The notes beneath the pieces were generated by a model that worked only from the letters and a program-made list of their open reading frames with translations, did not search any database and was not told the origin of the DNA. From NCBI RefSeq assembly GCF_026210795.1, contig NC_089446.1, positions 2,509,001 to 2,573,000 on the forward strand: DNA of 64,000 nt. The letters are read 5' to 3'. The position numbers and the translations under genes are program-made. Source of the DNA: Rhizophagus irregularis (Eukaryota; Glomeromycota; Glomeromycetes; Glomerales; Glomeraceae). Below, piece after piece: positions 8,192 through 61,832 of the stretch; within the stretch, counting starts at the first letter, position 1, and each line of letters opens with the position of its first letter.

Positions 8192-9157
8192 ATGCCGGTT
8201 ACGTTTTCAAAACCCATTCAAGACATTCAAGGCGACTTGTCTGCAAGAGTCCTTACAGAAAAAGAGGACGAGTTGGAAACTCTTATACTCTTATTTGAAA
8301 GCAAAATTGATAATAATAAAATGCCTACAGCTAATGAAATAGTAAAGCATCAAGATTCGAAGAAAAAAATCAAACGTCCGCCAAATTCCAATATAATCTA
8401 CACAAACCAGCTCGGAAAGTGCGGGCTATTAGATATTATCAGGAATTTTTGTGATCATCATGGTATAAATAAGCAAAAATTAGTCCCCATTTCCAAAAAA
8501 GTAAGCAAAACATTATGGGAAAGACTATCACCAGTTCACCAAGGATTTTTTGAGGAATTGGCTTTAAAAGTCAGTAAGGAACATAAATTAAAACATCCAA
8601 ATTATAAGTATCAACCCGAAAGAAAAAAAAAGAAAACACCCACATACAAACATTATGATCCTGAGAAAAAGTTAAAACATAATACCGATTCAAATCATCA
8701 CGTGGAAAATCCTTCCGCCGATAATGAAGTAAATGAGCAACAATATGAAGAATCAAATACATCAACCGATAATGAAGTAAATGAACAACAATATGAAGAA
8801 TCAAATACATCAACCGATAATGAAGTAAATGAACAACAATATGAAGAATCAAATACATCAACCGATAATGAAGTAAATGAACAACAATATGAAGAATCAA
8901 ATACATCAACCGATAATGAAGTAAATGAACAACAATATGAAGAATCAAATACATCAACCGATAATGAAGTAAATGAACAACAATATGAAGAATCAAATAC
9001 ATCAACCTCATCTGCAAATTCTTCACCAACTTTTTCAGATTTATATTATTCATACGAATTGGATCCACCTACTTTTGTTGATTATGACTTATCGGAATAT
9101 TTTGGTGAAGGTCTACTAAATAATTTAAGTACTAATTATGATCCAAACGCCTTTTAA
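8192..9157 (+). CDS. MATA-HMG-like HMG-box protein with acidic 16-residue repeats
   Basis: 321 residues. The HMG box spans about 61-142: K-R-P-P-N-S at the start, core W109, and a terminal H-P-N-Y-K-Y (136-141), followed by the basic run RKKKK (144-148), a likely nuclear localisation signal. HMG boxes bend DNA in the minor groove; here the role is presumably as a nuclear transcription regulator, target unknown. Residues 177-272 are six tandem copies of DNEVNEQQYEESNTST, each with five acidic residues, giving a long acidic tail after the DNA-binding domain. The ATG at 8192 follows an A-rich leader and is the only start giving the full N-terminal region. The box is type A, closest to the genes at 34181 and 41121. 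There is no intron. Confidence 0.85.
   Translation: MPVTFSKPIQDIQGDLSARVLTEKEDELETLILLFESKIDNNKMPTANEIVKHQDSKKKIKRPPNSNIIYTNQLGKCGLLDIIRNFCDHHGINKQKLVPISKKVSKTLWERLSPVHQGFFEELALKVSKEHKLKHPNYKYQPERKKKKTPTYKHYDPEKKLKHNTDSNHHVENPSADNEVNEQQYEESNTSTDNEVNEQQYEESNTSTDNEVNEQQYEESNTSTDNEVNEQQYEESNTSTDNEVNEQQYEESNTSTDNEVNEQQYEESNTSTSSANSSPTFSDLYYSYELDPPTFVDYDLSEYFGEGLLNNLSTNYDPNAF
8720..9007 (+). repeat. Six in-frame 48-bp tandem repeats in the HMG gene
   Basis: Each unit begins GATAATGAAGTAAATGA and encodes 16 residues. Copies 2-6 read as identical. Copy 1 differs by one silent base (GAG for GAA). Near identity at synonymous sites points to recent expansion by slippage or unequal exchange, so copy number is likely to vary between strains or nuclei. 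The antisense strand is also open across the array, which is a by-product of the periodicity. Confidence 0.95.
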
Positions 9158-11179
9158 ATATTTTATTTATTAGTACCTATTCATTATATATATATTTATT
9201 ATAATAGTAAGCCTATGTATGAACAATTTAACAAATATAGAATTAAGATTTTTTTTTAAAAAAAAAGTGTTTTATTTAAGGAAATTTACTTACTTTAAAA
9301 AATCAAAAAAATCAAAAAAAAAAAAAAAAAATTTAGATTTTTTTTCTTCCTGTAATTAGAATTATTATTATAAATAAAATAGGAAATTTTTTTTTTAAAA
9401 AAAAAAAAAAAAAAAGTAAAATATGATATCATATCTTATTTTTTCAATGTTATTTAAAGTCTTTACTTACTTGTTTGCTTCAGTTGTTTGTTTTCTTATT
9501 CAAAATGGGTTGCATAATATGGAATCTTATTTTTTTAAATCTTTACTAACTTGCTTCAATTGTTTGTTTTCTTATCAAAATGAGTTGCATAATATAGAAT
9601 CTTAAAATTAGTTATTTAAAATCTTTACTTACTTGCTTCAGTTAATTGTTTGTTTTTCTGCATATTAAATATAGAATCTTATTTTTTTTTTAAAAAAAGT
9701 TATTTAAAATCTTTACTTACTTGCTTCAGTTCATTGTTTGTTTTCTGCATAATATAGAATCTTGTTTTTTTTTAAAGTTATTTAAAATCTTTATTTGCCT
9801 TAGTTTATCAAAATCAGCTGCACTAGTTTCAAAATTGCGAATTATTCGTTATTAGTTGTAATGTGAGACGAAAATTCGAATATATAAAAAATAAAATGAA
9901 ACTAAACTTTGTGAGCCTACTCGCTAGGAATAATTAGAAAAACTATAATGAAACTAATGAAATTAATGAAACGAAACGTTTGTACAATAATCCATCGGTT
10001 ACGTGACTATTTTTATTGTAGTATATTTAGATGAAACTATAAATAATCAGAAAATTTTTTAATTGTAAATAATCGACAAATATCTACAATATCGTACCAA
10101 TTAAAGTAATAAATAATGAAAATAACTTACAAAAAAAATCGAAACATGCCAAGAAACGCTTTCTCATTTCTCAATAGAATAATTAGAAAAGTTGTAAGTG
10201 AAAGAAAGAAGGAATGAACCTCCGTCATAAAATCAAATATTAATACGGTAAAAATACAAACAAAATAACCGGATGACGGAAAATTTTATAATTGAGTCTG
10301 TTTAATTCCTTATAAAGTAAATAGTAATACTAAAATAACAAATAATAATATCAGTATTTTTGTGAAACATTATGAAATATTATTTACACATTTAAGATAA
10401 TATTGTTTATTTCTTCTTGTACGAAAATGTATCTGATTAAATGTTCTTTGTGATGAATAAGAATGTATTAAAAATCTGATATGCAATGATCTACAAGTTT
10501 TGAAAGAGATAGATTCAAGAAAGTTACTATTTATAATTTGTATTGAACAAATTAAATTATTTTGTTTTAGGTTAAATTTTTAGGAAAAGAAAAGAAATAA
10601 AAGAAATAAATAAAAAAGAAGAGAAAGAAAGAAAAAAAAAAGTGTAAGAATAGAAAAGAAGAGAAAGTTTTTGTAAATAATAATTTTCAACCTGAAGCCG
10701 TGTAACGAAATTGTAATACATCAGTCATTTGCATTATTTCTTTTTTAAATCTATCACCAAAAAGCCTCAGAACATAATTAGTTGTTTTTTACTTTGACTT
10801 AACATTCGGGATTATTCTTATATTATATTGGGTTAGTTAGATATTTGGCTGTATCGGATTCCGGAGATTTTGTCCTATTAATATTTTTTTTTTTTCATAT
10901 TTATAATCAAAAACTAAATTTATCTTGTTGTTGTTGATTTTTATAGTATTTAAATGCATTGTTTCATCCTTTTTTTTTTTTTATGTATATAATATTATAA
11001 TATTATTTTAGTTATAATATTTATTATTGTTGTTATTTTATTTTATAAATAAATAAATAAATAAATATACATATATATATAATATATATTGTTAATTTTT
11101 TAAATATGTTGGTACTTTAAATTTTCCAATAAATACTTTGCATTTTTTGTAATGACAATCCCTCACCCACGTTCTAATT
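9158..11179. other. Intergenic region between HMG genes
   Basis: Holds the 80-bp tandem array at 9451-9825 and T/A homopolymer blocks (9250-9420, 10860-11100). The stretch 9830-10750 has moderate composition but only short frames without resemblance to anything. Confidence 0.6.
9451..9825 (+). repeat. Five degenerate ~80-bp tandem repeats
   Basis: Copies start near 9451, 9534, 9613, 9701 and 9779. The shared core reads TATTTAAAATCTTTACTTAC, then TTGCTTCAGTT, TTGTTTG, and GCATAATATAGAATCTTA. The last copy is partial. Spacers vary because of T-run length. The array lies about 300 bp downstream of the HMG stop codon. Confidence 0.85.
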
Positions 11180-11812
11180 ATGACCAGAGCTATAAAGAAA
11201 GCTTGTAGTAACGAAAGTAACGAAGACCTCATTAAGAAATATGGAAAGGTCCTCGATGAAGTTCAAGATACTTTAACGATCACGATCTCAAATGGGCAAA
11301 CCCCAACCGCTAACGAATTATTAATCAAGGGAGATTTGAAGAAACCCACTAATTCCAGTATGTTATGCATCAATCACCTTATCAAGACTTGCGGATTGAT
11401 GGATGAAGTTCGAAAAGTTGAAGGAACTTCAAAAAGAACTATGCAGATTACCAGGAGGCTAGGGGGGATACTATGGAAACGCATGGACTGTCACGGTCCA
11501 AACAAATTATTTTTTATCAAGCTCGCACAGGAGCTTAGACAAATCCATAAATCGAAATTTCCTAATTACAAACCAACTTCAAAGAAATCGGCAATACGAC
11601 AATTCAAATTTAAGCAATTTAAGCACGTTAATGATCACATACATATTATGAATGATCATCAGATTCAACCCAATATAACTAATCCTCAAAATTATTTACC
11701 TCAACAACAACAAATTTCACCACAATTAACACAGCAAGATTTTTCATATTCATCACCATATCAGCATGAAATCCTTTGTTATTCCGACGGAAACAACCTT
11801 TATATTTTTTAA
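11180..11812 (+). CDS. Divergent MATA-HMG-like HMG-box protein
   Basis: 210 residues. The box spans about 54-132: K-K-P-T-N-S (54-59), core W99, and F-P-N-Y-K-P at the end (127-132). It aligns with the type A boxes in layout: the N-terminal segment contains TPTANELL, like MPTANEI in the gene at 8192, followed by N-S and a C-G-L motif (71-73). The first box position, usually Arg in R-P, is Lys, and the second Pro is Thr, so it is the most diverged type A member. The tail is short, Gln/Asn-rich and ends in aromatic residues; there is no acidic repeat. Likely a nuclear DNA-binding protein with unknown target. ATG start, no intron. Confidence 0.75.
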   Translation: MTRAIKKACSNESNEDLIKKYGKVLDEVQDTLTITISNGQTPTANELLIKGDLKKPTNSSMLCINHLIKTCGLMDEVRKVEGTSKRTMQITRRLGGILWKRMDCHGPNKLFFIKLAQELRQIHKSKFPNYKPTSKKSAIRQFKFKQFKHVNDHIHIMNDHQIQPNITNPQNYLPQQQQISPQLTQQDFSYSSPYQHEILCYSDGNNLYIF

Positions 11813-12932
11813 ATTTATAAGAATTCCTTTTTTTATCTAAAAAATGTCATCAAAAAAAAATTTTATGATATTTTCCTAAGGAGTATATTTGCACCCGATT
11901 TCTTATGGAAATTTTACTATTCGGAATAATTCGTTTTTACAATTGACTTATTTAAATTATAGTACAACGGAAATGTTATTCACCTTTTTTATGATTGTAG
12001 TACTACGAAAATATTATTCACGTTTTTATTTATACTCACGTTTTATAGATCGACAAATTCAAAAATCTCAATTTATTTTAAATTTTATTCGCGTTTTTTA
12101 TTTCAAAATCACAATTTTTCTTCTTTTTTCTACGAAATTTTTCTTCGCGTTTTTATTGATTTACAAATTCAAAAATCACAAATTCATTTTTAATGGAAAT
12201 GGTATATATGTACAGTAAAAAATATATATTTTTTTCTTTCTTTTTAAATAAAATTCGTCCCCCGATAAATTCTATCGTGAAAATTTTTTTAAGATATTTG
12301 TCATATTTGTCACGTTTTTTTCAAATTATTTTGTCACATGACATGTATTATCACATGATAGACTAGAAGAGGTACGCGAGACGCAGCAACAATTAACCAA
12401 TAAAGTACTAAAAGTATTCGCCAACGACATCATTTTTTTACAGATATTTTTTTTTCTTTTTTTCTTTTTTTTCTTTAACATAGATACATCAATTAAATTT
12501 ATTGTAATTATTTTTATTTTTAAAAGAAATAAATTCAAAGAGTCAGTCACATTAATGCAATTTTATGCAGAATTTCATTAAAGAAAAAAAGAAGTTATGA
12601 ATAAATGATTATCTCTTATTACATTTTTCTATCTAGAAAGGTATTTATTAGATATACTTAGTGATAATTCTTTTTATGGTAAAAAGAAAATTAATTTTTA
12701 ATCAGTTTGAAAAATAATAATTTATTATTTCCTTTACAATGTGACCAATGAATTTCTATAGAGCGAACAAATCCCATTATTGTATGACATCATAAGCAAG
12801 AAGAAATTTATTTCTTAATACAGTAATCAAGATATATATTAACTAGAAGGATATTGAAAATTTATTATTTGAATACTCGTGAAATATTAAAAAATCAATT
12901 TATTGGTTTAAAAAATATGAAACATTATAAAA

Positions 12933-12959
<27 letters not shown>
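12933..12959. repeat. (AT)n microsatellite
   Basis: An uninterrupted AT dinucleotide run of about 13 units. Confidence 0.95.
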
Positions 12960-12965
<6 letters not shown>

Positions 12966-13580: not shown

Positions 13581-13612
13581 ATACATACATACATACATAT
13601 ATATATATATAT
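13581..13612. repeat. (ATAC)n/(AT)n compound microsatellite
   Basis: ATAC/ACAT tetranucleotide units pass directly into AT dinucleotide units. Confidence 0.9.
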
Positions 13613-14057: not shown

Positions 14058-14891
14058 ATGAGTTCTCTAGTAAATTCTAATTCTTGGCAAAACAAACTTA
14101 AATCATGTAAAGGAGACTATCCAACATTAAAACAACAAAAAACAATTGAAGAAAATTTTCAACGAGATGATATCTTTGGACACAAATATAACGTTAATGA
14201 TCTATTTAAACAGTTCTACAAAGTTTGGCCTGAAGAATCTCAAAGAGTAAAACCAAAAAGACAACCAAATTCTTTCATGATATTAAGAGCCGTCTTAGGA
14301 TTAGTGGCAAATGATAAAAATATTAAGTCCAAAATTGGAGATGGAACAGAACAGAGTAGGCTTGCATCGTTTATTTGGGGCGGAGCGAGTGAAAATGAAA
14401 AAAATAAATTTGAACAATTATGCTCTGAATTTAAAACATTACACCGCCAACTCTACCCTCAATACGTTTACAAACCAACTCCCAGAAATACAAAAGTTGG
14501 TTCCGTCGTGGAGATAAAAACGGCAGAATCATACCAGTCTCTTGGTATTTCAACAAGTATATCCGCTCCCATGGGTCACATAGGGCATTCTTTCCAAACA
14601 GAGATAAATGACACTTACCAACACCAAGAAGAAATGGAGATGGAAATAAATACAAGTGAATTAGATCAGCACACATTCTTTGATGGTTATTTCCCCTATG
14701 TACAATATAATAATCAACATTATTCTTCGATTTCCGTAAATTGCCCAGATCCAAATGATGGTCAAACATCATTTAGTGGCAACGTCGATCTACTCACACC
14801 ATATTTCACCACAGTCCGTCATCCTTTTGGAAGTTATCAGGATCTACAATTTCCCCGTGCGGGACAAAATAATAATAAATTTTATAAATAA
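14058..14891 (+). CDS. MATA-HMG-like HMG-box protein, type B
   Basis: 277 residues from the ATG at 14058; the open frame runs 13 codons further upstream but without an ATG. The box spans about 67-139: P-K-R-Q-P-N-S-F-M-I at the start, core W107, and Y-P-Q-Y-V-Y-K-P at the end. A G-D-G-T-x-Q-S motif (94-100) is shared with the gene at 44854 and absent from types A and C, so these two form a subfamily. The N-terminal 60 residues are not recognised. The tail is rich in Gln, Tyr and Asn, with a short Met/Glu patch (EEMEMEIN). Likely a nuclear DNA-binding regulator. It sits 2.2 kb downstream of the gene at 11180 on the same strand, but separate long A+T-rich spacers argue for individual promoters. 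No intron. Confidence 0.82.
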   Translation: MSSLVNSNSWQNKLKSCKGDYPTLKQQKTIEENFQRDDIFGHKYNVNDLFKQFYKVWPEESQRVKPKRQPNSFMILRAVLGLVANDKNIKSKIGDGTEQSRLASFIWGGASENEKNKFEQLCSEFKTLHRQLYPQYVYKPTPRNTKVGSVVEIKTAESYQSLGISTSISAPMGHIGHSFQTEINDTYQHQEEMEMEINTSELDQHTFFDGYFPYVQYNNQHYSSISVNCPDPNDGQTSFSGNVDLLTPYFTTVRHPFGSYQDLQFPRAGQNNNKFYK

Positions 14892-16139: not shown

Positions 16140-16310
16140 TCATATTGTTATAAAATATGAAAAAAGTAATAAAAAAAATATTATTATAATTTATATAAAA
16201 TATGAAAAAGTAATAAAAAATAGTTTTATAATTACAGTAATTCGAATAATCTTTATAAAATATAAAAAAAGTAATTTTATAATTACGGTAATTCGAATAA
16301 ATCATTTGTA
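16140..16310. repeat. Short degenerate tandem repeat
   Basis: Blocks of TATAAAATATGAAAAA-type sequence followed by AGTAATAAAAAA occur repeatedly. TTTTATAATTAC(A/G)GTAATTCGAATAA appears twice, about 55 bp apart. Confidence 0.6.
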
Positions 16311-21260: not shown

Positions 21261-24200
21261 GTTACATGATCATCACGTGTAAAAAAAAAATTTTGTACTT
21301 AGATTTAGAACCATTACTTAATTTTTTTTATATAATTTAAAAATTAAATACTTTCAAAGTTATTTTTATTTATTCCTGAATTTATAACTAAAAGAAAATG
21401 AATAAACAAAAAAATTGTATTTTATTAATTACTAATATTTGGCTATTAATTAGTTATTACAATTATTTAATATTAATTTCTATTTTTCTGAATTATTATT
21501 TTTTTATTTTTTATTTATTATACTTATTATACATTTGTATTTTTTTTTTAATATATTTTCTAAAATAACATAGAATCATAGATATGTAATAAATATAATT
21601 ATTTAATTTTTAAAATTTTTTAAATTTATTGGCAAAAAATTATTAGTAAATATAAAATATTAAGAAAATTTTATTATTTTATTTTCAAATTAAAAATTTA
21701 TTAATCAGAATTTTATTATATATATTGATTAATTTTTTTTTTTATTTAACTTTAAACTTTCTAGTATTTATATATTAAAAATTTTAAAATTTGTAAAAAT
21801 ATAATATATTGTAGTTCAATAAATTTTAAAGATTTAAATAATTTATTTAAATATAATTAAATAATATTTTTTTTTTATATTTAATATAATTTATTTTAAA
21901 TTTTATTATTATAATAAAATATAAAATTCAGAATATTATATGCAATATAATATACTAATAGTTTATATACTAATAGTTAATATTACTTATAAATTTTTTT
22001 TATTTTATTTTACAACTAATAAAAAATCTCATTATATTAATATTATATATAATTTTATAATATAATATTACTATAATATTTTTATTCTTTTACAGTAATA
22101 TATAAGAATATATACTGATATTTTGGTTATATATACTAATACTTAATTTTACTTAATATTATAAATTTAGTTAATTAAATTTTAATTTGCATTATAATTT
22201 GCAAAATATTATCAGTAGTAATTATTACTATTAGTGATTTTATTAGTTTAATTTTTTAAATTTTATAAGATTAATATTAAATTAAATAATTAAATAGTAT
22301 ATATATTATTTTATATAAAATATAAAATGAATAATAAAAAATATGTATAATAATTATTTTTTTAAAAGTCATCTTAAACTTATATTATAACAATTTTTTA
22401 TAATCAGTATCACTATATATTTAAATAAATTTTCTTATATTTTTTTTATTAATAAATTAGGGAAATTACATATATTACGTAATATTCAGTTTAATATAAA
22501 CTTACTCCCCTTCCCCCTCTTGTCAGATTTAATAACCAATCAAATTTTATTATTTATAAATCATATAATCCCCCTTTGATAATTACGTAATATATGTAAA
22601 TTCCCTTAGTAATATATTTAATATATTTATAAATTATATAAATAATTACTAATAAATATTAAAATTATTTTTTTTAAAATTTCTTATATTAAATAAATGA
22701 AAATTTTTTATAGAATTATATTATGAAATTTTATTTTAATTATTATTTTATTTCTGATTGGAATTTTCTGATTGTAATAATATAATACAATAAAATTATA
22801 AAAATCTTACTTATATAATAAAAAAAGTAGATAAAATTCTTATAGTTAATCAGTTCAGAAATTGTTATAATATAATGTAAAATTGCTTATTAAAATTAGT
22901 GAATTTTGTCATATCAAAATTGTCAAAATTATTTTTTTATTTTATTATTTGCATTTTAATTAATTTTAATAATAAAATAATTTCATTATTTTGTTATAAT
23001 ATCAAAATATCAATATTTTTAATATTTTGGCAATAACCTTTTTATTTTTGGTAAACAACTTTATGCAATACTTAGTTCTATGATTTGAATGAAAACTTAT
23101 AATTGAAAACTGTTAATTTTATGAATTTTAAAATTAAATATAAGATGATTGGATTTATTTGCTTTATAGGAAAAATTTATAAATAGTATCTTTGTATAAA
23201 AAAAAAGGTGTAATGCGTTAAGATAGACTGTTTTAATAAATTATACTTTTTGAATAAAATATACCACCTAATAGTATGTATATAAAGTACTCTTTGCATG
23301 TATAATAAGTAATATGATAATTAATAATATTAGAGTAATATAAATAGTGATTTTTATTATATATATTTTTATTTCTTTTTTTATTTTAATAAATTATCAT
23401 ATACACCATACTGGCTGCAGAAAAAAAAAAAATATAAAATCACATAATTATACAAATATTATGTAAATATATTTACTATTATTATATTATTTAATAGTTT
23501 TAAAAAGAAATAATTATAAAGAAAAATTTAAAATTATTTAATAAACAAAATTATATATGTATTAAAAAAAAAATAATAATAAAAATTAACTGTATATTAC
23601 AAAAAAAATTCATTGTATTTAAATTTTAATTTAAAATTAAATTATATAAAAAATTTAATTTAAAAATTGAATAATACTCAAAAATATATTTGTAAAATAC
23701 TAAATATATAAGAAATTAAAATATAATTATTATTAAAATAATTAAAAAATTAATAGAATTACTAAAAGAATACTAATTAAAATAAATTTTTATATTAAGT
23801 AAAATATCTGAATTTTATAAAGAAAATACTATATATAATATTAAATAATAAAAATTATAAAATGCTTGAACATTACATTATATGTTCATATATTATACTA
23901 ATCAGTTAATTATTTTTTTAATTATTTTTTAGATATGTTTATTACTGTATTTTTTTTTTGTTTTTTTTTAAATCAGTTTTTTAGATATAATTGCTTTTAA
24001 TTTTAGAATTGGATAATAAGTAAGTTTTTTTTTTATCTTTTATTAACTTATTTACTTTTTTAAAAGTGATTGTTTTGGTTTATATTTTTAATAAAGATTC
24101 AAAATAAGCCTCTTTTTTTTTCTTTTTTTTTGCTTCTATTTTTCTTTTTTTTAAATACAGCTGTTTTTAGTTTTTCTTTTAATGAAAATTTAAGATGAAT

Positions 24201-32880: not shown

Positions 32881-34119
32881 CAATTTTGCAGAGGACTATA
32901 ATTTGGACCAAGATTAACAAATCACGTAGACGAAAAAAAAATTTAATACGGTATGCAATCACACGTTTTCTGTTAAGTGTCAACGTATTTTAAATAATCA
33001 CTCATATTATTTTGTTCCCACGTAAAAAAAAAAGTATTATTTTATTCCCAAATTTAGAATATTCGATTATAGATTGAAAGATCAGATATTCGTATAGGAA
33101 AATTAGATAATTTTTTTTTTTTTGGCGCAAATTGACATGACTCAGTAATTTCTCTCAGTTATGATGGTGGGAAGGAAGGCAATCTTTTGTATATATAAAT
33201 GTTTAGGTTCATAATATGATTGCTGTAATATAGTTAAATACGGTAATGCCAAACAATTATGATTTTTGATTTATAATTTTAAAGTGGAACTGCGCTTGTA
33301 CGAACGTTAAATTTGTCAAGCTATGATTGGTACTTAGGCCAATCCTTTCCGGCGTTACTTTAGCGCCCGTTTTTATATTTTTATATCTGTATCATATCTC
33401 TGTACGTAAAAAACAATTTATTTATTATCAATATTCTTGTGTAAATAATCACATAAGTTATGAAATCAGAGTTGGTACTGAGTTGCACTTTATGTTCTGA
33501 GTTGGAATTACCCAGGTTGTAAAGGTAGTAAATACTTTATTTTGACCCTGGCCAAATTCCTAAGTTTAGTACAAATAATAAATCAATTAACATCATTATC
33601 TTTTCACCTCAACAGAATTTTATTATTATTTACAATGTGTTAAATTCTTTCGCTTAAATTTTATTGTGTGCTTGTTCTAATTTTATATTAATAAAAATGT
33701 TGTGCAATAGTGATACTAAAAAACGTTTTTAAACATTTGAGTCATAATTACTCAAGATCATGACTCATCATGAATAATCGAGATCTTCGATAAAATCCCC
33801 AGCAAATCTGAATTTTAAAAAAAATGCGTATTTTTTTTTGCCACGCATTTTTTTTGCCAGGACGGACAATAATGGGACTTATAAATTAAAATTTTCTTTA
33901 AAAAGGAAATTCCTTCGGTCCGATCTTATTTAAGCAAATTACAAGACGTACTAATTACAGTAAGTTGGAATTAAAAATGAAATTACATAAAGGGTAATTT
34001 GTATTCACATTTAAAGTTTGTCATATGATATTTATTAATATTGATAAATATATTTATGCAATAAACTAAAATAATTAATTTATCGAGGAAATTCTCTCTC
34101 ATTTCAATTTTTTTTTTCC
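32881..34119. other. Intergenic region upstream of the truncated HMG gene
   Basis: Composition returns to the ordinary level here. No supported gene and no clear repeat were seen. Confidence 0.55.
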
Positions 34120-34180
34120 TTGTGTCCAGTTTTTTTTTTCAAAAAAAAAGAAAAAAATTTTTTCACGTTTTATTCCCGAT
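34120..34180 (+). promoter_or_regulatory. 5' leader block shared with the paralogue at 41121
   Basis: CCTTGTGTCC, a T-run, an A-run with AAGAAAAAAA, and TTCACGTTTTATTC(C/T)CGAT occur in the same order immediately before both ATGs. The match stops upstream of CCTTGTGTCC. It is either a conserved 5' untranslated/core-promoter block or simply the edge of the gene duplication. Confidence 0.6.
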
Positions 34181-34645
34181 ATGGCCGCAAAACGAAATGT
34201 ACCTAACAAACAAGATATTTTAAATCATTATGATGAACATTTAAATGAAATAAACGAAACCGTTGACAAGTTACTTAATGCGATTAAAATTGACGATATC
34301 CCGAACGCAATTAAATTCCTACCGAAATCCGAAAAAAAGAACGGTCGCGCCAAAAGACCGCCTAATTCAAATATATTATGTTCGAATCAACTCATGAATT
34401 TTGGCATCAGAAAGATTGCTGAAAATATTTGCGAAAAATATGATTATGATAAACAACGAATATTAATATTATCAAGACAATTCACGGGAAGAATCTGGAA
34501 AGAAATAATTTCCGTTGAAACAAAACAATATTTCGAAAATTTAGCTAAAGATATCGATAATCTTCATAAAGAAAAGTATCCGGATTATAAATTAAAGTCT
34601 CGCAGAAAAAAGTCAACTGTTAACTTTTCAGTTAAAATACTTTAA
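34181..34645 (+). CDS. MATA-HMG-like HMG-box protein, type A, truncated tail
   Basis: 154 residues. The box spans about 57-138: A-K-R-P-P-N-S-N-I-L at the start, core W106, and Y-P-D-Y-K-L at the end, followed by SRRKK (140-144), a basic patch. It is co-linear with the gene at 41121 from residue 1 through the box (MAAKRN, QDILNHY, INETVDKLLNAIK, FLPKSEKKNG), so the two are recent paralogues. That gene continues for about 210 residues after the box; this one stops 16 residues after it (ending FSVKIL). The loss leaves an almost bare DNA-binding domain. Such a form could compete with the longer paralogue for sites (inference). Alternatively it is in early decay. ATG start supported by the shared leader. 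No intron. Confidence 0.8.
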   Translation: MAAKRNVPNKQDILNHYDEHLNEINETVDKLLNAIKIDDIPNAIKFLPKSEKKNGRAKRPPNSNILCSNQLMNFGIRKIAENICEKYDYDKQRILILSRQFTGRIWKEIISVETKQYFENLAKDIDNLHKEKYPDYKLKSRRKKSTVNFSVKIL

Positions 34646-39265: not shown

Positions 39266-41047
39266 GATAATATTCATAAATAAGATTGATTTATTGCTTA
39301 ATTGTTTACCCGATTATATTACTAATAAATTACAATGAGGGAATTATGCTCCAATCGAATAATAAATAAAATTATTAAGCATATACTTACTATACATATA
39401 TATTTTTTCTTTTTGTCGGGTTGGCAGTTCTGTGTTCCGGGTCACTCCTTATCTCCTATTCTCCTTATACCTTTAACCTGTTAATTAAGGATAAATTTGG
39501 TATCGGTTAACGAAATACAAAATCTAGGATGAATAAAATTTTGCATTATTTAACATCATTGACTAATTTGTTATGATTTCAACTATTTCGATTACTTTTG
39601 ATTACTTTGCACCACCTCATATGAACGCCCAGTTCCCAAATCCATAATACGCATTTTATGTAAAGATATTTTTAGCTCAACCCAAAAAAAGAAATAAATT
39701 TGCGGAAAAAAAAAGAATATTATATTTGAAAATTTTTTAATGTCTTTGGACAATTAAAATTTCTTTTTTTCACATGAATAATAAATTCTTCCCCAATTTA
39801 GTTATATGAAATTATTATAAAATATTTTCTCTAAAGAATCAGAATAGAATAACGAATTTCTTTGAGAGTATTCCATAAATTTAAAAATAGAAACCATAGA
39901 AAACATGTGTAAAAAATTTAAATATTTGTTTACTTAAGTTATTTCTGATAGGAATTGTTACTTTTCTAAGAAAAAGGGAAAAAAACAAATTCAGTTAGAA
40001 CGAACGGATGTAGTGTCCCCCTGCTGAGTTAACCAGCAGGTAAAAGAATATTCTCTAACTTTTCTAAACAATGAAGTAAATTATTTGTTCTTATGCTAAA
40101 TTTGGTGATTTATAAAAAAAAAGAGATTTTCCTAAACAATGAAATTTTAACTTAATGCGGAGTTTTGATCAAATTACAAAATGAAAATTTTTTATAGAAA
40201 GGATGTAAAATTACAGCCGTACTTATTGATCATCATAGCGCATATCGGAGTAGTTCGTTAATAATTTTTTTTCGATATTTTTCAAATAACCAAACCATCA
40301 TTTTTTGTCAAATTCTTCGATCCTTATGAAATAATTTATTAGTGTTAGTATAAGAATTGCGTATCTGTGACATAATTTAATTTAATTTTAATTTGTTCAT
40401 AAAAAAAAAAAATTTTTTTTACTTTACTTTATTTAGAATGAATTATCGAATTATCTCATTGAATCCATTCCTAAATTTGGTTAAAGCCAGATTTTTATCA
40501 CTTAATTTCATATCACATTTACTTTGAAAAAATTACCTTTTATTTTTTCGAAGTTTTTTAATATAAAAAAGGGTATATCGACTTTGTCATTATAAATAGA
40601 TTTTTATTTATATTGTTTTTTATAATACTTAGGCTCGGAATTGATATTCCAATTTAAATATATATAAATTATTATTTAATTACTTATGCCAATTTTTTAA
40701 TAAATAGTCCGTTTAATCGAATATTTTAGCCCTCTGACTTTGAAAACTTTATAAGAATTCCAAAATTGTAAATCAAGCAAATTTATTCATTGCTTTTTTT
40801 AATTATTTAATATATACATATATTTACAAATATATATATATATTTGTTTTATGTATATATGTATATATGTATATATGTAATATAATAAAAAAAAAAATTT
40901 TTTTTTTATCAAATAATTTAAATCATCACTTTGTTGAATAAATTCGAAAATTTCTATATAAAAACAGTTTTCGGTTTTTGCAAATTTTTTTTTTTTTATT
41001 GAGGACAAAAAGTTCTTCTTCATTTTAATATATTTTTTTTTCGTGTC
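39266..41047. other. Intergenic region
   Basis: No supported gene. Contains a microsatellite-like tract of TATATG/TATATA words at 40811-40879 and homopolymer runs close to the next gene. Confidence 0.6.
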
Positions 41048-41120
41048 CTTGTGTCCTTCAGTTTTTTATCAAAAAAAAAAAAAAAAAAAGAAAAAAAATT
41101 TTTTTCACGTTTTATTCTCG
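41048..41120 (+). promoter_or_regulatory. 5' leader block shared with the paralogue at 34181
   Basis: Contains CCTTGTGTCC, then T- and A-runs, then TTCACGTTTTATTCTCG directly before the ATG. The A-run is longer than in the paralogue. An open frame continues upstream through the A-run as poly-Lys but has no ATG, which supports the start at 41121. Confidence 0.6.
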
Positions 41121-42170
41121 ATGGCTGCAAAACGAAATCCTAACGAACAAGATATTTTAAATCATTACAATGAACATTTAGACGATATTAACGAAACCGT
41201 TGACAAGTTACTTAATGCGATTAAAACTGGCGGTATCTCGAACGCAAGCGAATTCCTACCGAAATCCGAAAAAAAGAACGGTCACGCCAAAAGACCGCCT
41301 AATTCAAATATATTATGTTCGAATCAACTCATGAAGCTTGGCATCAGAAAGATTGCTGAAAATATTTGCGAAACAAATCATTATAATAAACAACGAATAA
41401 TGGTTGTATCAAGACAATTCACGGGAAAAATCTGGCGAGAAATAATTCCCAATGAAACAAAAAAATATTTCGAAAATTTAGCTAAAGATGTCAATGAACT
41501 TCATAAAAAAAAATACCCGAATTATAAATTGGTAAAGTCTAAAAGAAAACTTAAGAATATTATAATTAAACAATATGATACATCAAGTAAAGTAAATAAA
41601 ACGAGACAAAGAAAAAATTCGCTTGTGAAAAATGAAGCAGAAATTTTACCTGCCATACCACTCTTATCTTCACTCCTCCCATCACTCTCACCTTCACTCC
41701 CGCCTTCACTCCCACCTTCACTCCCTTCTTCGCCCCCATCTTCACCGCGCTCAGACGAAGATGGATTAGTTAGCATGTCACTTACATCACTTACATCTGC
41801 ACAATTTTATCCCGATTTATATTCACATACTATACCACCTACAATGATTTCGAAAATACCTTCACCACAACTTTTTTCCCAATATTTTACAAATCAGACT
41901 TCGACTTCTTTCCCATTACCTCGCTTGAATAATCAATCGTCAATTCAGCCAGGTCATAACGTTCAAATGACAAATCCTCATTTTATTCCTACGACGTGGC
42001 TTACGCCAACTTATCCTAATCCAATTACTAGCGAAGTTACTCCCCCTACATTTAATATATATCCTTCACCTTCACCTTTGTCATGTGAAGATAAACTTCA
42101 CAATTTTGGAAAATATAATGATGAGATTTTATCCTCTAAGGATCAGCCATCATCATACACATATTATTAA
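41121..42170 (+). CDS. MATA-HMG-like HMG-box protein, type A, long Ser/Pro tail
   Basis: 349 residues. The box spans about 57-137: A-K-R-P-P-N-S-N-I-L, core W105, and Y-P-N-Y-K-L at the end. Basic stretches follow (KSKRK at 139-143; KTRQRK at 160-165), likely nuclear localisation signals. Residues 184-209 are a low-complexity Ser/Pro/Leu block built on a four-residue L-P-P-S unit, then an acidic SDEDG. The remaining tail is rich in Pro, Ser, Thr, Asn and Tyr, as in fungal activation domains. It is the full-length counterpart of the gene at 34181: same N-terminus, same leader, with the tail intact here. The ATG at 41121 matches the paralogue's start. Probably a nuclear transcription regulator, target unknown. 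No intron. Confidence 0.85.
   Translation: MAAKRNPNEQDILNHYNEHLDDINETVDKLLNAIKTGGISNASEFLPKSEKKNGHAKRPPNSNILCSNQLMKLGIRKIAENICETNHYNKQRIMVVSRQFTGKIWREIIPNETKKYFENLAKDVNELHKKKYPNYKLVKSKRKLKNIIIKQYDTSSKVNKTRQRKNSLVKNEAEILPAIPLLSSLLPSLSPSLPPSLPPSLPSSPPSSPRSDEDGLVSMSLTSLTSAQFYPDLYSHTIPPTMISKIPSPQLFSQYFTNQTSTSFPLPRLNNQSSIQPGHNVQMTNPHFIPTTWLTPTYPNPITSEVTPPTFNIYPSPSPLSCEDKLHNFGKYNDEILSSKDQPSSYTYY
41670..41747 (+). repeat. In-frame 12-bp repeats encoding Ser/Pro/Leu
   Basis: CCTTCACTCCC(G/A) and close variants repeat in tandem. They encode LPPS-type units at residues 184-209. Variation between copies is higher than in the 48-bp array at 8720. Confidence 0.8.
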
Positions 42171-44853: not shown

Positions 44854-45726
44854 ATGACTTTGTCGTTAAAACAAGATTGGGAAATTAGACTTAGACCTCT
44901 TTATATCAAATATGCTGAAAATGATAGAATAAATTTGTTCAATATAATCAATCAATTCGAATGTAATGAAATTTATAATCCTAATATTGACGTACATGAA
45001 ATATTCGAGCATATATACAAACAATCCTCTCATGAAGGTGGATTAACAGCAAAAAGACAACCAAACCCATTTATGATTTTCAGGACTGCCTTGGGAATAA
45101 CCGCATCACGTAAATGTGTTAAACTTCGAGACGGAACTTGTCAAAGTAAAATTGCTGGTTTATTATGGAGAGGAGCAACACAACATGAAAAAAAGAATTT
45201 TGAAACTTTATCTTTAAAGTTTAAGAATTTACACAAACAAAAGTTTCCAGGGTATGAATATAGGCCGAAAGCAAGAAATCCAGTCTCTGGCACTTTTGTT
45301 GATATGAATAATAATTTTGGAACTAGAATCGATTCTAACAACCAATCAATGTCTCAAATATCCCAACAAATCCAGCAGATTTCTAAAGATAACAATGCCA
45401 CATGGGATCAACCATCTTCATTCACGTTTACAGGTTATGCTGCTGGATTAGAAGGATTAGATTCAAATTTTATGATAGGTGGTTTGCAGTATCAACTTCA
45501 GCAAGAACAAACTCAATTTTACCAAATCCCTCAATTCCCGTTACCTGAAATGTATGTACCTCAAACATACTTACCTACGGAACTCTATCCAACAAATCCG
45601 TTGAATAATGAGATTAATATAAATAAAGTCGAATATTTCCAACAAGCACCTCCTCCATCCATCGCTGAAAATTGCCCAATTCAATGTTTTGATTTTAATA
45701 ATGGAATAGATTTTCATTTTGGATAA
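44854..45726 (+). CDS. MATA-HMG-like HMG-box protein, type B
   Basis: 290 residues. The box spans about 67-138: K-R-Q-P-N-P-F-M-I-F-R at the start, core W105, and F-P-G-Y-E-Y-R-P at the end. It shares with the gene at 14058 the R-Q-P-N start, the D-G-T-x-Q-S motif (93-98), the A-x-x-x-W-x-G-A core (101-108) and L-H-x-Q near the end, so they form a subfamily pair. N-terminal residues 1-60 are weakly similar between the two (conserved spacing to the box). The tail is Gln-rich (QQIQQ; QYQLQQEQ) and then Pro/Tyr-rich, a composition common in transcriptional activation regions. It follows the gene at 41121 by 2.7 kb on the same strand, as 14058 follows 11180. ATG start, no intron. Confidence 0.83.
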   Translation: MTLSLKQDWEIRLRPLYIKYAENDRINLFNIINQFECNEIYNPNIDVHEIFEHIYKQSSHEGGLTAKRQPNPFMIFRTALGITASRKCVKLRDGTCQSKIAGLLWRGATQHEKKNFETLSLKFKNLHKQKFPGYEYRPKARNPVSGTFVDMNNNFGTRIDSNNQSMSQISQQIQQISKDNNATWDQPSSFTFTGYAAGLEGLDSNFMIGGLQYQLQQEQTQFYQIPQFPLPEMYVPQTYLPTELYPTNPLNNEININKVEYFQQAPPPSIAENCPIQCFDFNNGIDFHFG

Positions 45727-52536: not shown

Positions 52537-52545
52537 AAAATAAGA

Positions 52546-56972: not shown

Positions 56973-57978
56973 CACAGGCGATCTCGATAACTGAAACTCA
57001 TCCGTTCATACTTCCATTAGAAAAAATACGATATATCGAAAATAAATCTATTATTGTGCTATAATACTCCGTTCCAGACCCAACTCCGGTATATTGAAGG
57101 TTCAGGTTTATCAAGATTGCCTGTGTAATTGATTTCATGAACTAAAGAAGAAAATAATAAAAAGCTTATGTATTGATAAAGAAATTTGAAAATGAGTTTT
57201 TAGTGAATATCTTAATTATCAATTCAATCTAACAAAAATGAGAAAATCGATTCTTGTAGATTGAATGTTTCATTGGGAATTGAAATTTCATATATATTAA
57301 TATCCTGCGGGCAAGTAAAGAAATTATCTAACGGATGGTGGTAATTAATATTCTGATCGGAAAATTCATAATTTGGATATATGATTCGTTCAAAGTCTAA
57401 ATTATCAATATTATATATAAGTTGTTGATTTACTTGATTCGTGGTATTTTTTTGGATAATTTTAGGTTTTCTTGGTTGTTTTCTAGTTGTACTTTTTTTT
57501 GACTTACGTTCTGTATCTCGAAAGTTGCCGTCATGCATACCAACGAAAATCGAACCAGCTGGCTTGTTTTTACAATAGATTTTATCTTTATGGTATTCAT
57601 TTTGCAGATTTTTAACTTCTGTGGCGAGCTTCTTGTATTTTTCACGATCTTCCTCCCCCAATTTTTTCCACATTTCACTAACGACTTGTGTAAAAAATAC
57701 TCCATCTTTTACTTCCTCTATGAGACCTTGTTCCAATACTTCAAGATAAACGACATGCCTAAAGACAAAAAAGCAGTTCATCGACCTTCTGGGTAGTCCT
57801 TCTTTATTCAAATCTTTGACCATTATTTTATTCGCTGAATACTCTGGTGGAAAAATTTTCGTAAGGTTAAGTTTTTCGATAAATTTGATTACTAATGTAT
57901 TATCCATCTTCTTGGGTCCGGACCCTTCTATATTTTCTGCTGAAGGCATAAGTTTACAATGTAACTCATCTACTTCAT
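55022..57978. repeat. Segmental duplication, copy 1
   Basis: Direct-orientation homologue of 59118-61708. Matching landmarks in order: CTTTCAAAC; TAATTTTGCTGTA; AACGTAGGCT; CTTTCGTAACAAAATTTGAC; CCTTTGTTTCAAG; TAGTCGTTACACTGAAC; CAAAGACTGGA(G/A)CCAC; GTACGCAATGATCAT / GTTACGCAATGATCAT; then most of the HMG coding sequence. Homology ends inside the gene's N-terminal coding region. Confidence 0.85.
56973..57125. mobile_element. 153-bp TA-flanked MITE, present in one duplicate only
   Basis: Left end CACAGGCGATCTCGATAA, right end TTATCAAGATTGCCTGTG: reverse complements with three mismatches in 18. TA lies outside both ends (56971-56972, 57126-57127). The corresponding place in the second duplicate (about 60880-60895) lacks it. 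TA duplication indicates a Tc1/mariner-type element; interior words such as CGATATATCG and CCGGTATATTGAAGG recall the pogo-like element at 51669. Confidence 0.8.
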
Positions 57979-58024
57979 TCACTATTACAGGGTCAATATT
58001 TTTGAATTGTTCAAGCTTTTCCAT
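57224..58024 (-). CDS. MATA-HMG-like HMG-box protein, type C (copy 1)
   Basis: 266 residues. The box spans about 77-145: L-P-R-R-S-M-N-C-F-F-V-F-R at the start, core W119, and E-Y-H-K-D at the end. The conserved R-x-x-N and aromatic run make this the most canonical-looking box type in the window. An upstream segment (39-75, KMDNTLVIKFIEK...) is shared only with the gene at 60960. A basic stretch (KSKKSTTRKQPRKPK, 174-188) follows the box and is a likely nuclear localisation signal. The tail is Asn/Tyr-rich. From residue 38 to 170 it differs from copy 2 at five residues by my hand alignment; the first ~15 residues are unrelated. Probably a nuclear DNA-binding regulator. No intron. The gene is reverse strand, opposite to the A and B types. 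Confidence 0.87.
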   Translation of the reverse strand: MEKLEQFKNIDPVIVNEVDELHCKLMPSAENIEGSGPKKMDNTLVIKFIEKLNLTKIFPPEYSANKIMVKDLNKEGLPRRSMNCFFVFRHVVYLEVLEQGLIEEVKDGVFFTQVVSEMWKKLGEEDREKYKKLATEVKNLQNEYHKDKIYCKNKPAGSIFVGMHDGNFRDTERKSKKSTTRKQPRKPKIIQKNTTNQVNQQLIYNIDNLDFERIIYPNYEFSDQNINYHHPLDNFFTCPQDINIYEISIPNETFNLQESIFSFLLD

Positions 58025-60959
58025 TATATTGAAAAGAAACTTTTAAAAAAGACAAGATAAAAAAATTGACACGAAGTCTATGAAAAAAAAAATTGCGGTT
58101 TAATACTATCGTTATTATTTTATACAACACTTGGGATGTCGTGTTGTAAAATCTAAACCAAAAGCTTCCTTTTTTTATATGTAATTTATCTATTTTAGTA
58201 ATAATTTATGCACATAATTAAAAATCAATGCTATATTAAACTATCACGAAATTAGTTAAAGGTAAAATGACCAAACCTTATTCTTTGAATTTATTATGAT
58301 TTTTTAGATTTTAGTAAAACTAAGGATTTTGATTTCACCCATTCCGTTGTGTAATAGTAAACAATTATCGGATACATTTTTGCATAAAAATAGTTAAAAA
58401 AAATCGGAGAAAAAACCCGTTAATGCATAATCTGAGTATCACTACTGACCAATCACTACTAAATTTATTTATTCATTTGATTCGTTTGACAAAACTAGCT
58501 TATTTTGATTATTGTGTCATTTTATCCGGATAATTATCGGATATTCGTTATCCGAGGATTGGCAGAAATCCGGATTAATTAACCGTTACGCGGAATTTTC
58601 TGAGATTTGTACAGTATTACTACTGTATTACTAATGTAAAATTTGCACAGATCCCGATAATTCCTGCAAATGCCATGGGAATCCCATCACTAGTACCATC
58701 CCTCCGGCAAGAACGGCGCAAAAATTTTCTATAGATTCGCAGTGATAAATTGTCAAATTGCAAAATTTGCTTATGATATTCTACCAAAATTTGTTCCTGC
58801 AATCCAACATATTCGTTTGTAACTATTGTACAAATACAATAAATATTATAATAATGAATTTTTTAACTAAGAGTTATAAGAAAGTCTTAAATGCAACTTC
58901 GATTGAATAAAAATTTTTATTGTACATTTATCAAATAATTCTTATTCTGTGTAACTTTTGTAACTATAACCAGAGAGGTACTAATAAACATGATATTTTC
59001 GTTGCAGTGCTTATTAAGAGTTTGTTTAAAATTTCGGTATTGATCGTTACTTTAAAAGTCTGTCTATTCAAGATTTATTCATTTTTTAGACTCATGATTT
59101 GATTTGTATAACATTACGCTTTCAAACGATTTTGGGGTCAAATGAGAATTTAATTTTGCTGTATAAACAACGTAGGCTAGAAAGTGATGATCTACGTGAT
59201 TTCTCATAATTCGTGGCCAAGGATTGTGAAATGTGAAGTGAATCGCTTCTTTCGTAACAAAATTTGACAACTAAAAACTTTCCCGTCATTTTGATTAACA
59301 AATATTCAGAGAAAATTTTACACTGACAAAAAAATTAAAAATATTGAACTATAAATAATTCTTGTATAAATATTTATAAATTATAAACATCTTTTTTTTT
59401 CTTTAACCTATTAAACAAAAAAATTTTTTTTTCCTAAATTTGTAAATTTCAAATCCCATTATTTTCATTAGTACAAGTTCCCATTTTCTTCTAATGCTTT
59501 TTTATTTATTTACTTTTTTACCTTTGTTTCAAGTTTGTTTATATTTTATAAATTGTGATCATTGAAACCAGAATGTCACTGATTACGTGCATACAAATGA
59601 TTCGAAAGTTTAAATCTTGTTTTTGTATTGTACTCAAAAAATAGAATTCCAAATTTCTTTAAAAGGATACTTTATCATATACTGTATATTATGTCAGTAT
59701 TATGTAAAAATTAATGTGTCATTATTATTGTTCTTTTTTACTTACGAAATTTTAATAAAAATAATTTCTAAATAAAGGATTTCTAAAGTTTTGTTCCCAA
59801 ATATTTAAAACACATCTTTTCTAATGTACACTTTCAATTACAAAGATTTCACAAAGAGACAAGTCTAGAATGAGACACGATCGACATGATTTACTCCACA
59901 AAATAAAATTTGTACGAAATTAAACATTGCCCAGGAAAAATCATTTCCAATAAAAAATTATATTTGTTTTTGTTTTTCTATTTCGTTTCGAGTTTTTATT
60001 TGTGAAATTGAAGAACCAACCATAATAATAATAAAGCCCAATAAATAAATTTTGGAAAATTTAAGGACTTTCCTAAGCTGCGCTTTCTGAATTTAAATTC
60101 TGTTTGGGTGCTTACATAATAATTCGTATAATTCGGTACTTTTATTATTATTATTTTTTAGTGCATACATTGACTGAGTAATTGAAATTTAAATTGTACA
60201 AATGATAAATTATAAAATTTTATTAGTGGGATAAATAGAATCAAAATAAAATTGTATTTATGGAAAATCATAATTGAAATAAATATATAAGAACGCGTTC
60301 TAGAAATCATTGTAGTCGTTACACTGAACAAATCAAATATTTCACATTTTTATTAAGAAAATGAACGTATAGTTTATTTGCAAATTTCAAAGGTTAATTC
60401 GACCATGCATATTAAGTTACGAAATTGCGGTGCATTTAATAAGTAATAAGTTTCTTATTATAATGCAATTTTTTAATTATACGTGAAGATTAAAAAAATT
60501 TACAGAATCGTTAAACGGAAAGAAAAAGAGAAATAAGCAAAGAATATAGAAATGAAAATAATTTTCCAAAAATTTTAATTATAACAAACAAACCGAAAAT
60601 CCAAAGACTGGAACCACTTGTTAAAATTTGGGATGCAAATCATTTAGTGAACAATTAATTGATTGATCACTCGGCTCGTTACGCAATGATCATTTTAAAA
60701 AATTACGTGTTATGATTAACAATGCCAATTTTTTTTTATTTGCCAATTTCATATAATTTTATTTATCTTAATACAACGTTATTTACCCATAAACAAATCC
60801 ATATGCTTAAAAATTGAATGAAATGAAAAAAAAATACATATGTAATAAATTGCATAGCTGTTAAATATGTACCATATTATGTAATAAATAAAAATCTTAT
60901 GTATTAATAAAGAAATTTGGAAATGAGTTTTTAGTGAATATCTTATTTATCGATTCAAT
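58025..60959. other. Spacer between the two type C genes
   Basis: 58025-59117 is unique to this copy and includes a patch with TTATCCGGATAATTATCGGA and GTTATCCGAGG (58365-58580), akin to the inverted-repeat element at 2180-2957. 59118 onward is the second segmental duplicate. No other gene is supported. Confidence 0.55.
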
Positions 60960-61708
60960 CTAACAAAAATCAAATGGTAAAAACGATTCTTGTAGATTGA
61001 ATGTTTCATTGGAAGTTGAAATTTCATATATATTAATATCCTGCGTAAAGAAATTATCTAACGGATGGTGGTAATTAATATTCTGATCGGAAAATCCATA
61101 ATTTGGATATATGATTCGTTCAAAGTCTAAATTATCGATATTATATATAAGTTGTTGATTTACTTGATTCGTGGTATTTTTTTGGATAATTTTAGGTTTT
61201 CTTGGTTGTTTTCTAATTGTACTTTTTTTTGACTTTCTTACTTTATGTTCTGCATCTCGAAAGTTGCCGTCATGCATATTAACGAAAATCGAACCAGCTG
61301 GCTTGTTTTTACAATAGATTTTATCTTTATGGTATTCATTTTGCAGATTTTTAATTTCTTTGGCGAGCTTCTTGTATTTTTCACGATCTTCCTCCCCCAA
61401 TTTTTTCCACATTTCACTAACGACTTGTGTAAAAAATACTCCATCTTTTACTTCCTCTATGAGTCCTTGGTCCAATACTTCAAGATAAACGACCTGCCTA
61501 AAGACAAAAAAGCAGTTCATCGACCTTCTGGGTAGTCCTTCTTTATTCAAATCTTTGACCATTATTTTATTCGCTGAATACTCTGGTGGAAAAATTTTCG
61601 TAAGGTTAAGTTTTTCGATAAATTTGATTACCAATGTATTATCCATCTTTTTGGCTTCTATATTTTCTATTGAAGGCATAGATTTATAATGTGACGCATC
61701 TACTTCAT
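59118..61708. repeat. Segmental duplication, copy 2
   Basis: Direct homologue of 55022-57978, shorter because of several deletions and the missing 153-bp MITE. Non-coding parts far from the gene show many substitutions and indels, while the coding part is almost identical. Confidence 0.85.
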
Positions 61709-61832
61709 CGTTAATGAATGGGTTGCTTTCATGTACCACTTTATTGGGTTCGATTTCCCCTCTACTTTCCGATGAATAAAGTGACATATCTCTGCTTTCT
61801 TCATAAAAATCATTATGAGGGATTGAATTCAT
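60960..61832 (-). CDS. MATA-HMG-like HMG-box protein, type C (copy 2)
   Basis: 290 residues. The box spans about 99-168 with L-P-R-R-S-M-N-C-F-F-V-F-R at the start and core W142. It is near identical to copy 1 from about residue 42 on, but the first 40 residues (MNSIPHNDFYEESRDMSLYS..., Ser/Glu-rich) and the whole upstream flank are unrelated to copy 1. Each gene is therefore probably driven by a different promoter. An extra V-R (HKVRKSKK) lies in the basic patch. The last few residues also differ because of a small indel just before the stop (LPFDFC versus FSFLLD). Likely a nuclear DNA-binding regulator. ATG start, no intron. Confidence 0.87.
   Translation of the reverse strand: MNSIPHNDFYEESRDMSLYSSESRGEIEPNKVVHESNPFINDEVDASHYKSMPSIENIEAKKMDNTLVIKFIEKLNLTKIFPPEYSANKIMVKDLNKEGLPRRSMNCFFVFRQVVYLEVLDQGLIEEVKDGVFFTQVVSEMWKKLGEEDREKYKKLAKEIKNLQNEYHKDKIYCKNKPAGSIFVNMHDGNFRDAEHKVRKSKKSTIRKQPRKPKIIQKNTTNQVNQQLIYNIDNLDFERIIYPNYGFSDQNINYHHPLDNFFTQDINIYEISTSNETFNLQESFLPFDFC

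What the first reader, a model, noticed from the sequence alone, without database searches (positions are those of the whole stretch)
8192..61832. Eight intronless MATA-HMG-like genes of three box types in one 54-kb stretch
Seen: eight frames with an HMG-box layout (R/K-x-x-N start, single core Trp, Y/H-rich end) at 8192, 11180, 14058, 34181, 41121, 44854 (plus) and 57224, 60960 (minus), falling into types A, B and C by box-start motif. Known: arbuscular mycorrhizal fungi have a greatly expanded MATA-HMG family, in contrast to one or two mating-type HMG genes in most fungi. Inference: this is one genomic nursery where subfamilies arise by local duplication and stay clustered, with boxes kept and tails replaced.
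Basis: partly seen in the sequence, partly recalled or inferred. Interest (0 to 1): 0.75.

Follow-up and report, generated by a model that had tools for sequence, protein, structure and literature searches.

The report
Clustered mating-type-like HMG-box genes
This stretch of what appears to be the root-symbiont fungus Rhizophagus irregularis really does hold eight open DNA-binding (HMG-box) genes of three kinds, part of an already known, hugely expanded and clustered family; in the two youngest pairs here the DNA-binding box is shared but one protein end no longer matches.

Summary
All eight frames lie at the stated coordinates, each has an HMG box, and they fall into three types. Only 3 of 8 pass a curated Pfam cut-off, but the eight as a profile hit SOX/SRY/capicua in the PDB (E 2.7e-12), and the model of 8192, the one frame without a Pfam HMG hit, finds SOX17/SRY first (Foldseek E 0.03, none <= 0.001).
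Clustering is real: 66 neighbouring pairs under 50 kb among 173 listed places, 9.9 expected. It is not unique: C12 has 9 in 51 kb. An HMG tandem array in this fungus is in print (PMC7490403).
The 'nursery' reading holds partly. For 7 of 8 genes the best other hit in the genome is in the window; 8192's are an array on C29. The three types did not visibly arise from each other here.
'Boxes kept, ends changed' is supported in both recent window pairs: the shared block stops inside the coding frame, at the C-end in A, at the N-end in C. Unexpected: type A boxes mostly lack the aromatic wedge residue (2 of 8 aromatic, others 27 of 27) and have a longer first half. Function is inferred only.

The parts
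8192..9157 (+). Type A HMG gene, 321 aa; box about 8360-8641; 48-bp repeat x6 in frame at 8718-9007 in the tail; best relatives on C29
11180..11812 (+). Type A HMG gene (divergent, long branch), 210 aa; box about 11330-11599
14058..14891 (+). Type B HMG gene, 277 aa; box about 14241-14501
34181..34645 (+). Type A HMG gene, 154 aa, short tail; box about 34334-34618
41121..42170 (+). Type A HMG gene, 349 aa; box about 41271-41561; 12/24-bp repeats in frame in the tail at 41659-41745
44854..45726 (+). Type B HMG gene, 290 aa, over the HMG_box cut-off; box about 45043-45291
57224..58024 (-). Type C HMG gene, 266 aa, over the HMG_box_2 cut-off; box about 57551-57808
60960..61832 (-). Type C HMG gene, 290 aa, over the HMG_box_2 cut-off; box about 61290-61547; first 41 or so codons lie outside the block shared with 57224
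34107..34609 (+). A-pair shared block (85% to 41032-41549): from about 75-90 bp before the ATG to just after the box; background identity on both sides
41032..41549 (+). partner of the A-pair shared block
57156..57978 (-). C-pair shared block (93% to 60887-61708); 5' edge inside the coding frame; weaker 3' homology on to about 56280
60887..61708 (-). partner of the C-pair shared block

Best explanation
A local stretch of the known AMF MATA-HMG expansion. SHOWN: eight open frames, each with one HMG box; three old subfamilies side by side; for seven of the eight the closest relative found in the genome is 4 to 31 kb away, for 8192 it is on C29. SHOWN: in the two recent window pairs the shared DNA is a block with the box, and its edge falls inside the coding frame, so sister proteins share the box and differ at one end (C-end in A, N-end in C). 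INFERRED (about 0.6): new members arise by partial tandem copying of a box-bearing segment whose frame then reads into neighbouring unique DNA; some tails then change by in-frame repeats. INFERRED (about 0.8): the proteins are single-box, sequence-specific DNA-bending regulators; older copies are held by purifying selection on the box, the newest show no significant constraint yet. INFERRED (about 0.4): type A boxes, mostly without the aromatic wedge residue and with a longer first half, bind or bend DNA differently.
For: Frames. HMG profile and fold. Groups: (A plus C29 98/97, B 99/98, C plus C18:2363k 100/99). Best other genome hit inside the window for 7 of 8 (by protein; 34181 by DNA only); 8192 on C29. 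Edges: in 60-base windows identity falls from about 0.87 to 0.25-0.50 (A, 3' side) and from 0.86-0.97 to 0.33-0.55 (C, 5' side) over about 60-100 bp, while silent divergence of the shared coding blocks is 0.14 and 0.06, so point change alone does not explain the unmatched ends. 57224's N-end resembles the C18:2363k outgroup's first N-end (3 of 5000 shuffles as good), 60960's does not (4270 of 5000); against the second 2363k box neither does (2311 and 4830 of 5000). Bases 1-113 of the 124 that code 60960's N-end have no other match in the genome (that search skips simple repeats and very common words). Purifying selection on older boxes: 8192 against C29_2136, 35.7 of 214 replacement and 43.3 of 50 silent sites differ (p 2e-20); B pair box w 0.25 (p 6e-6); 60960 against C18:2363 box 2 w 0.24 (p 6e-7). 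Wedge position aromatic in 2 of 8 type A against 27 of 27 others; wedge residues 9, 12, 13, 43 from PMC9771472 (passages).
Against: Only two window pairs show an edge; the B pair is too old to tell. A third recent pair, C29_2142/2149, has a block (84%) that also ends inside its repeat-bearing tail, but weaker homology (65-70%) goes on at both sides, more like an old larger duplication. Which copy is derived in the A pair is not resolved (post-box against 8192: 98 of 3000 shuffles as good for 41121, 62 of 3000 for 34181). The C block may be gene conversion: 3' flank islands differ at 36 of 288 aligned bases, silent sites at 7 of 123 (p 0.051). The A-pair box shows no constraint (w 1.08), so 34181 may be a decaying copy. 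No transcript, protein or binding data.
Confidence: 0.6

Rival explanations
1. Old tandem duplicates whose box tracts are homogenised by gene conversion, while the ends outside the tract diverged long ago; the block edges are conversion-tract edges, not copying edges.
For: C pair: homology goes on more weakly beyond the 3' edge (77-89% islands), and flank divergence is higher than silent divergence in the block (36 of 288 against 7 of 123, p 0.051). C29_2142/2149 has weaker homology on both sides of its block.
Against: A pair: outside the block only low-complexity matches, whereas conversion between homologous genes should leave diverged homologous flanks; the test for C is borderline.
Confidence: 0.25
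2. The youngest copies (34181 above all) are decaying fragments without function; the ends differ because the copies are breaking down, and the cluster is mostly by-product of frequent tandem duplication.
For: No significant constraint in the young pairs (A 1-140 w 0.76, p 0.54; A box 1.08; C block 0.49, p 0.16); 34181 stops soon after the box; one C29 copy is broken by stops; other gene families lie in similar arrays nearby.
Against: All eight frames are open; older boxes are clearly constrained; 60960 and 57224 keep full-length frames and matching tails.
Confidence: 0.2
3. The cluster was assembled by relocation: genes of old, separate subfamilies moved here from other chromosomes, with later local doubling.
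For: Types are old relative to each other; 8192's kin form an array on C29.
Against: The best other hits of types B and C are on C18; the direction of any C18-C29 move is unknown.
Confidence: 0.2

Closest known systems
Expanded MATA-HMG family of Rhizophagus irregularis (Riley et al. 2014, New Phytol; not held; known from citations and title only)
   Different: At least 173 box-bearing places listed here; four type A frames of the window score below Pfam's cut-off, so domain counts would miss them
Five-gene tandem of HMG-box genes holding GBC31594.1 in R. irregularis (PMC7490403, passages)
   Same: HMG-box genes in a local tandem in the same species; one member induced when two isolates coexist in a root of one cassava genotype
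   Different: I could not tell which locus that is; the window holds eight genes of three types on both strands, with non-HMG stretches between
SexM/SexP HMG genes of Mucoromycotina MAT loci (as described in PMC7490403 and PMC3834313, passages)
   Same: HMG-box factor, proposed relatives of the AMF genes in those papers
   Different: One gene between a transporter and a helicase there; many genes in arrays here; no sequence comparison with SexM or SexP was run
SOX/SRY and capicua single HMG boxes (PDB)
   Same: Box profile and, for 8192, predicted fold; Asn at the box start in all eight
   Different: Animal proteins; type A lacks the aromatic wedge residue in 6 of 8 boxes and has a longer first half
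Tandem arrays of expanded families in R. irregularis (BTB, Sel1, Kelch, kinases; PMC8647823, passages)
   Same: Same genome habit of clustered paralogues
   Different: HMG was not among the families named in the passages seen (0 occurrences of 'HMG' in that text)

Membership tests
HMG-box domain (Pfam HMG_box / HMG_box_2) | score over a curated Pfam cut-off | tested here: inconclusive
   3 of 8 over a cut-off; 4 of 8 sub-threshold; 8192 none
HMG-box domain | box profile and three-helix fold | tested here: met
   profile of all eight hits SRY/SOX/capicua (E 2.7e-12); fold tested on 8192 only with usable confidence; type C model poor
TCF/SOX/MATA class of single boxes | one box per protein with Asn at the box start and core Trp (class label recalled) | tested here: met
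   one box in each of the eight; N and W invariant in 8 of 8
SOX/SRY-like DNA-bending box | hydrophobic wedge with aromatic at position 12 | tested here: inconclusive
   met in the four B and C window boxes, not met in the four A window boxes (N, S, N, N)
MATA_HMG subfamily | hit to the CDD MATA_HMG model | not testable with these tools
   CDD is not held
MATA_HMG / SexM-SexP | MAT-locus neighbourhood (transporter and helicase) | not tested
   no transporter or helicase model was run on the window; no frame of 130 aa or more other than HMG, kinase and a shadow frame
MATA_HMG / SexM-SexP | role in mating | not testable with these tools
   no expression or genetic data
Tandem gene array by local duplication | neighbours are each other's closest relatives | tested here: inconclusive
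   7 of 8 best other hits in the window, 8192 on C29

The most novel reading that the evidence does not exclude
The type A genes (four here, four open and one broken copy on C29) are a distinct AMF class of HMG box that has given up the DNA-bending aromatic wedge and gained a longer first half, and the cluster generates new regulators by copying the box block into neighbouring DNA, so that each new protein pairs an inherited DNA-binding box with a newly read end, possibly serving recognition between coexisting strains.
Probability: 0.12. Interest if true: 0.75.

Novelty: new variant of a known kind. Interest (0 to 1): 0.42.

Why it matters
Why AM fungi carry so many mating-type-like HMG genes is open. 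If new members are made by copying a box into fresh sequence, the expansion is a source of new regulators and not mere copy number, and the window gives recent pairs on which to test it. The type A boxes also warn that Pfam-based counts of the family are too low.

Tried and rejected
Transposon carriage of the A block: not supported; the block has two long copies in the genome, the 3 other matches being 35-47 bp pieces of query bases 70-116. Retrocopying: not supported; the A block starts near the presumed 5' end and stops inside the frame (edges; no formal test). Donor for the odd ends: none found (60960 N-end; 41121 tail, where all 5 other matches lie beyond the stop codon); that search skips simple repeats and common words. 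Tail homology between types: none in the DNA held (tblastn, E 0.01); only the C pair's tails match each other. A shared pre-box module: C and ordinary boxes share a L-D-x-x-x-I-F-P-P-like stretch (C members: 0-2 of 200 shuffles as good in both trainings); type A is not shown (2-137 of 200 when trained on the 21 others, 21-182 of 200 when B and C are added); B is mixed (64 and 15, then 5 and 0 of 200). Positive selection in the A box: w 1.08, p 1, no claim. Rfam at gathering scores and tRNA: nothing. NCBIfam: no HMG or other credible hit for the eight. A number of mine was wrong: one search compared 13 of 155 with 45 of 191 flank differences, and the 45 counted gap columns; (36 of 288 against the 7 of 123, p 0.051) replaces it. 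The w printed as 0.00 for 8192/C29_2136 comes from saturated silent sites; I use the counts. The 173 places are only; brought five more (C27:1687026, C1:3765131, C2:1964949, C15:2831851, C26:655415) that are not in the counts; some places may be exons of one gene (C10:2045283-2046846) or broken copies.
Full report
WHAT IS THERE. The window is C18:2509001-2573000 of a genome of 146,748,485 bases in 32 contigs. That fits the Rhizophagus irregularis DAOM197198 assembly of 146,773,001 bp in 32 scaffolds (PMC10234402, passages seen), so I take it to be that fungus; this is an inference. Of 11 stop-to-stop frames of 130 aa or more in the window, 8 are these, 1 is a minus-strand shadow of 8192's repeat and 2 are kinase pieces (Pfam for the second kinase piece 1.4e-35, none for the first).

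ARE THEY HMG BOXES? Pfam alone would not settle it: 3 of 8 exceed a curated cut-off, 4 are sub-threshold, 8192 has no HMG hit. As a profile the eight find solved SRY, capicua and SOX boxes at E down to 2.7e-12. An AlphaFold2 model of 8192 (residues 61-140 at pLDDT 80-96 by tens, whole protein 57.8) retrieves SOX17 and SRY first (Foldseek prob 1.00, E 0.03-0.04, none at 0.001 or below). A second model, of the type C box, was poor (pLDDT 50) and is not used. All eight have the Asn of the box start and the core Trp.

CLUSTERING. A whole-genome HMG_box search scored 150 of 275 candidates and all 150 matched, so it is a lower bound; none of the eight is among them. With HMG_box_2 and protein searches I listed 173 places. 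They form 66 neighbouring pairs under 50 kb, against 9.9 in random placement (largest of 1000: 25). The extra searches centred on window genes, so C18's 22 is inflated relative to other contigs. C12:1328552-1379391 has 9 in 51 kb, more than the window's 8 in 54 kb. Groups of four or more also lie on C10, C17, C20, C27, C29 and C31.

THREE TYPES AND THEIR KIN. In a tree of 35 boxes, A (four window genes and four of C29) has support 98/97, B 99/98, and C with two boxes at C18:2363-2364k 100/99. The eight are not one clade (lnL 128 lower; without six long-branched rows, among them 11180, lnL 136 lower, p-AU 0.0002). In both trees the C18:2363k boxes fall within the C group so that the C pair is not exclusively together, but this cannot be told from a pair (0.05 log units). 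Whether 8192, 34181 and 41121 form a clade apart from C29 is not settled by trees (p-AU 0.048, 0.19), but by search score 8192 is far closer to C29 (best 194.7 bits, 67%) than to 41121 (71.4 bits, 35%). The best other hit of the remaining seven is in the window (34181 by DNA only).

ENDS. For the A pair, shared DNA covers 34107-34609 and 41032-41549 at 85%, with only low-complexity pieces outside; it runs from 75-90 bp before the ATG to just after the box, then falls to background. Elsewhere in the genome this block matches only three pieces of 35-47 bp. For the C pair the block 57156-57978 / 60887-61708 is 93% and ends inside the frame at its 5' side; beyond its 3' side weaker homology goes on. 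57224's first residues resemble the first N-end of C18:2363k (3 of 5000 shuffles as good), 60960's do not; neither resembles the second. So 60960 seems to be the copy with the new end. 'Boxes kept' holds in both pairs (pre-box plus box 106 of 110 residues identical in C, box 70 of 90 in A); 'tails replaced' holds for A, while in C the tail stays (101 of 110) and the N-end differs. A recent pair on C29 (2142/2149) has an 84% block ending inside its tail, with weaker homology on both sides. Gene conversion is a live rival for C (p 0.051). Tails of 8192 and 41121 hold 48-bp and 12/24-bp repeats in frame.

SELECTION. Older pairs are constrained: 8192 with C29_2136, the B pair, and 60960 with C18:2363 box 2 have a significant excess of silent change. 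Young ones show no significant constraint: A pair 1-140 w 0.76 (p 0.54), its box 1.08; C block 0.49 (p 0.16); C29_2142/2149 0.72 over 1-140 (p 0.60).

A POINT NOT IN THE FINDING. Box position 12, part of the hydrophobic wedge in SRY/SOX (residues 9, 12, 13, 43; PMC9771472, passages), is aromatic in 27 of 27 non-A boxes and in 2 of 8 type A boxes; the Asn-to-Trp distance is 41-44 in type A and 32-36 in 26 of 27 others, 44 in one (C18:2665k). The numbering is mine, by matching the Asn. The comparison was made after seeing the alignment, and the rows are related, so the printed Fisher p (1.7e-5) is not independent evidence.

CONTEXT AND PRINT. Of 47 frames of 130 aa or more in the 264 kb read ten were scanned: one BTB-SPRY, two F-box (one just under the cut-off), FAR1 and a sub-threshold Mutator transposase, Plavaka, IBR, two without a hit and one with a sub-threshold chance hit; that more BTB and F-box frames stand beside them is by eye. 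Expanded families that occasionally form tandem arrays are described for this fungus (PMC8647823, passages). A large HMG family in AM fungi (PMC4771724, passages; PMC3834313, passages) and a five-gene HMG tandem with a member induced when two isolates coexist (PMC7490403, passages) are in print. Riley et al. 2014 and Yildirir et al. 2022 are not held, so I cannot say what they report on this cluster. The paper searches listed nothing on the type A wedge or on end replacement, but none asked for them directly, so I claim no absence from print.

VERDICT. A sound observation; a kind of cluster that is ordinary for this fungus; a partly right interpretation; and two features worth a test: block edges inside coding frames, and the altered type A box.

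Noticed in passing
C18:2363627-2364721 (L003 4627-5721, +): One open frame of 365 codons with two type C boxes (halves 59% alike, w 0.28, p 1e-8): it looks like an in-frame fused tandem copy.
   Followed up: partly
C12:1328552-1379391: Nine HMG boxes in 51 kb, a denser cluster than the one given.
   Followed up: no
window 21500-24000 and 35000-36250: G+C down to 7-10% in 500-base and 12% in 2-kb windows, the lowest in the 264 kb read (mean 25%).
   Followed up: no
window 4452-5762: Two frames in one orientation, the second a protein kinase (PK_Tyr_Ser-Thr 1.4e-35), the first without a Pfam hit; perhaps one gene with an intron.
   Followed up: no
window 8718-9007: Coding 48-bp repeat, 6 copies at 99%: could be a length-polymorphic strain marker.
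   Followed up: no
C18:2344k, 2495k, 2793k, 2795k, 2799k; C1:6790k; C18:2363k and window type C: A shared stretch before the box resembling L-D-x-x-x-I-F-P-P-x(5)-E-L; no Pfam family covers it in the two window type C proteins.
   Followed up: partly
C18:2368-2424 kb and 2480 kb (L003-L009, L015): BTB-SPRY and F-box frames, seemingly in arrays (three scanned), a FAR1/Mutator-like piece at 2393.9-2395.5 kb and Plavaka at 2480 kb.
   Followed up: partly
C29:2133821-2150569: Array of four open type A genes and one broken copy (C29:2145k), kin of window 8192 on another chromosome.
   Followed up: partly
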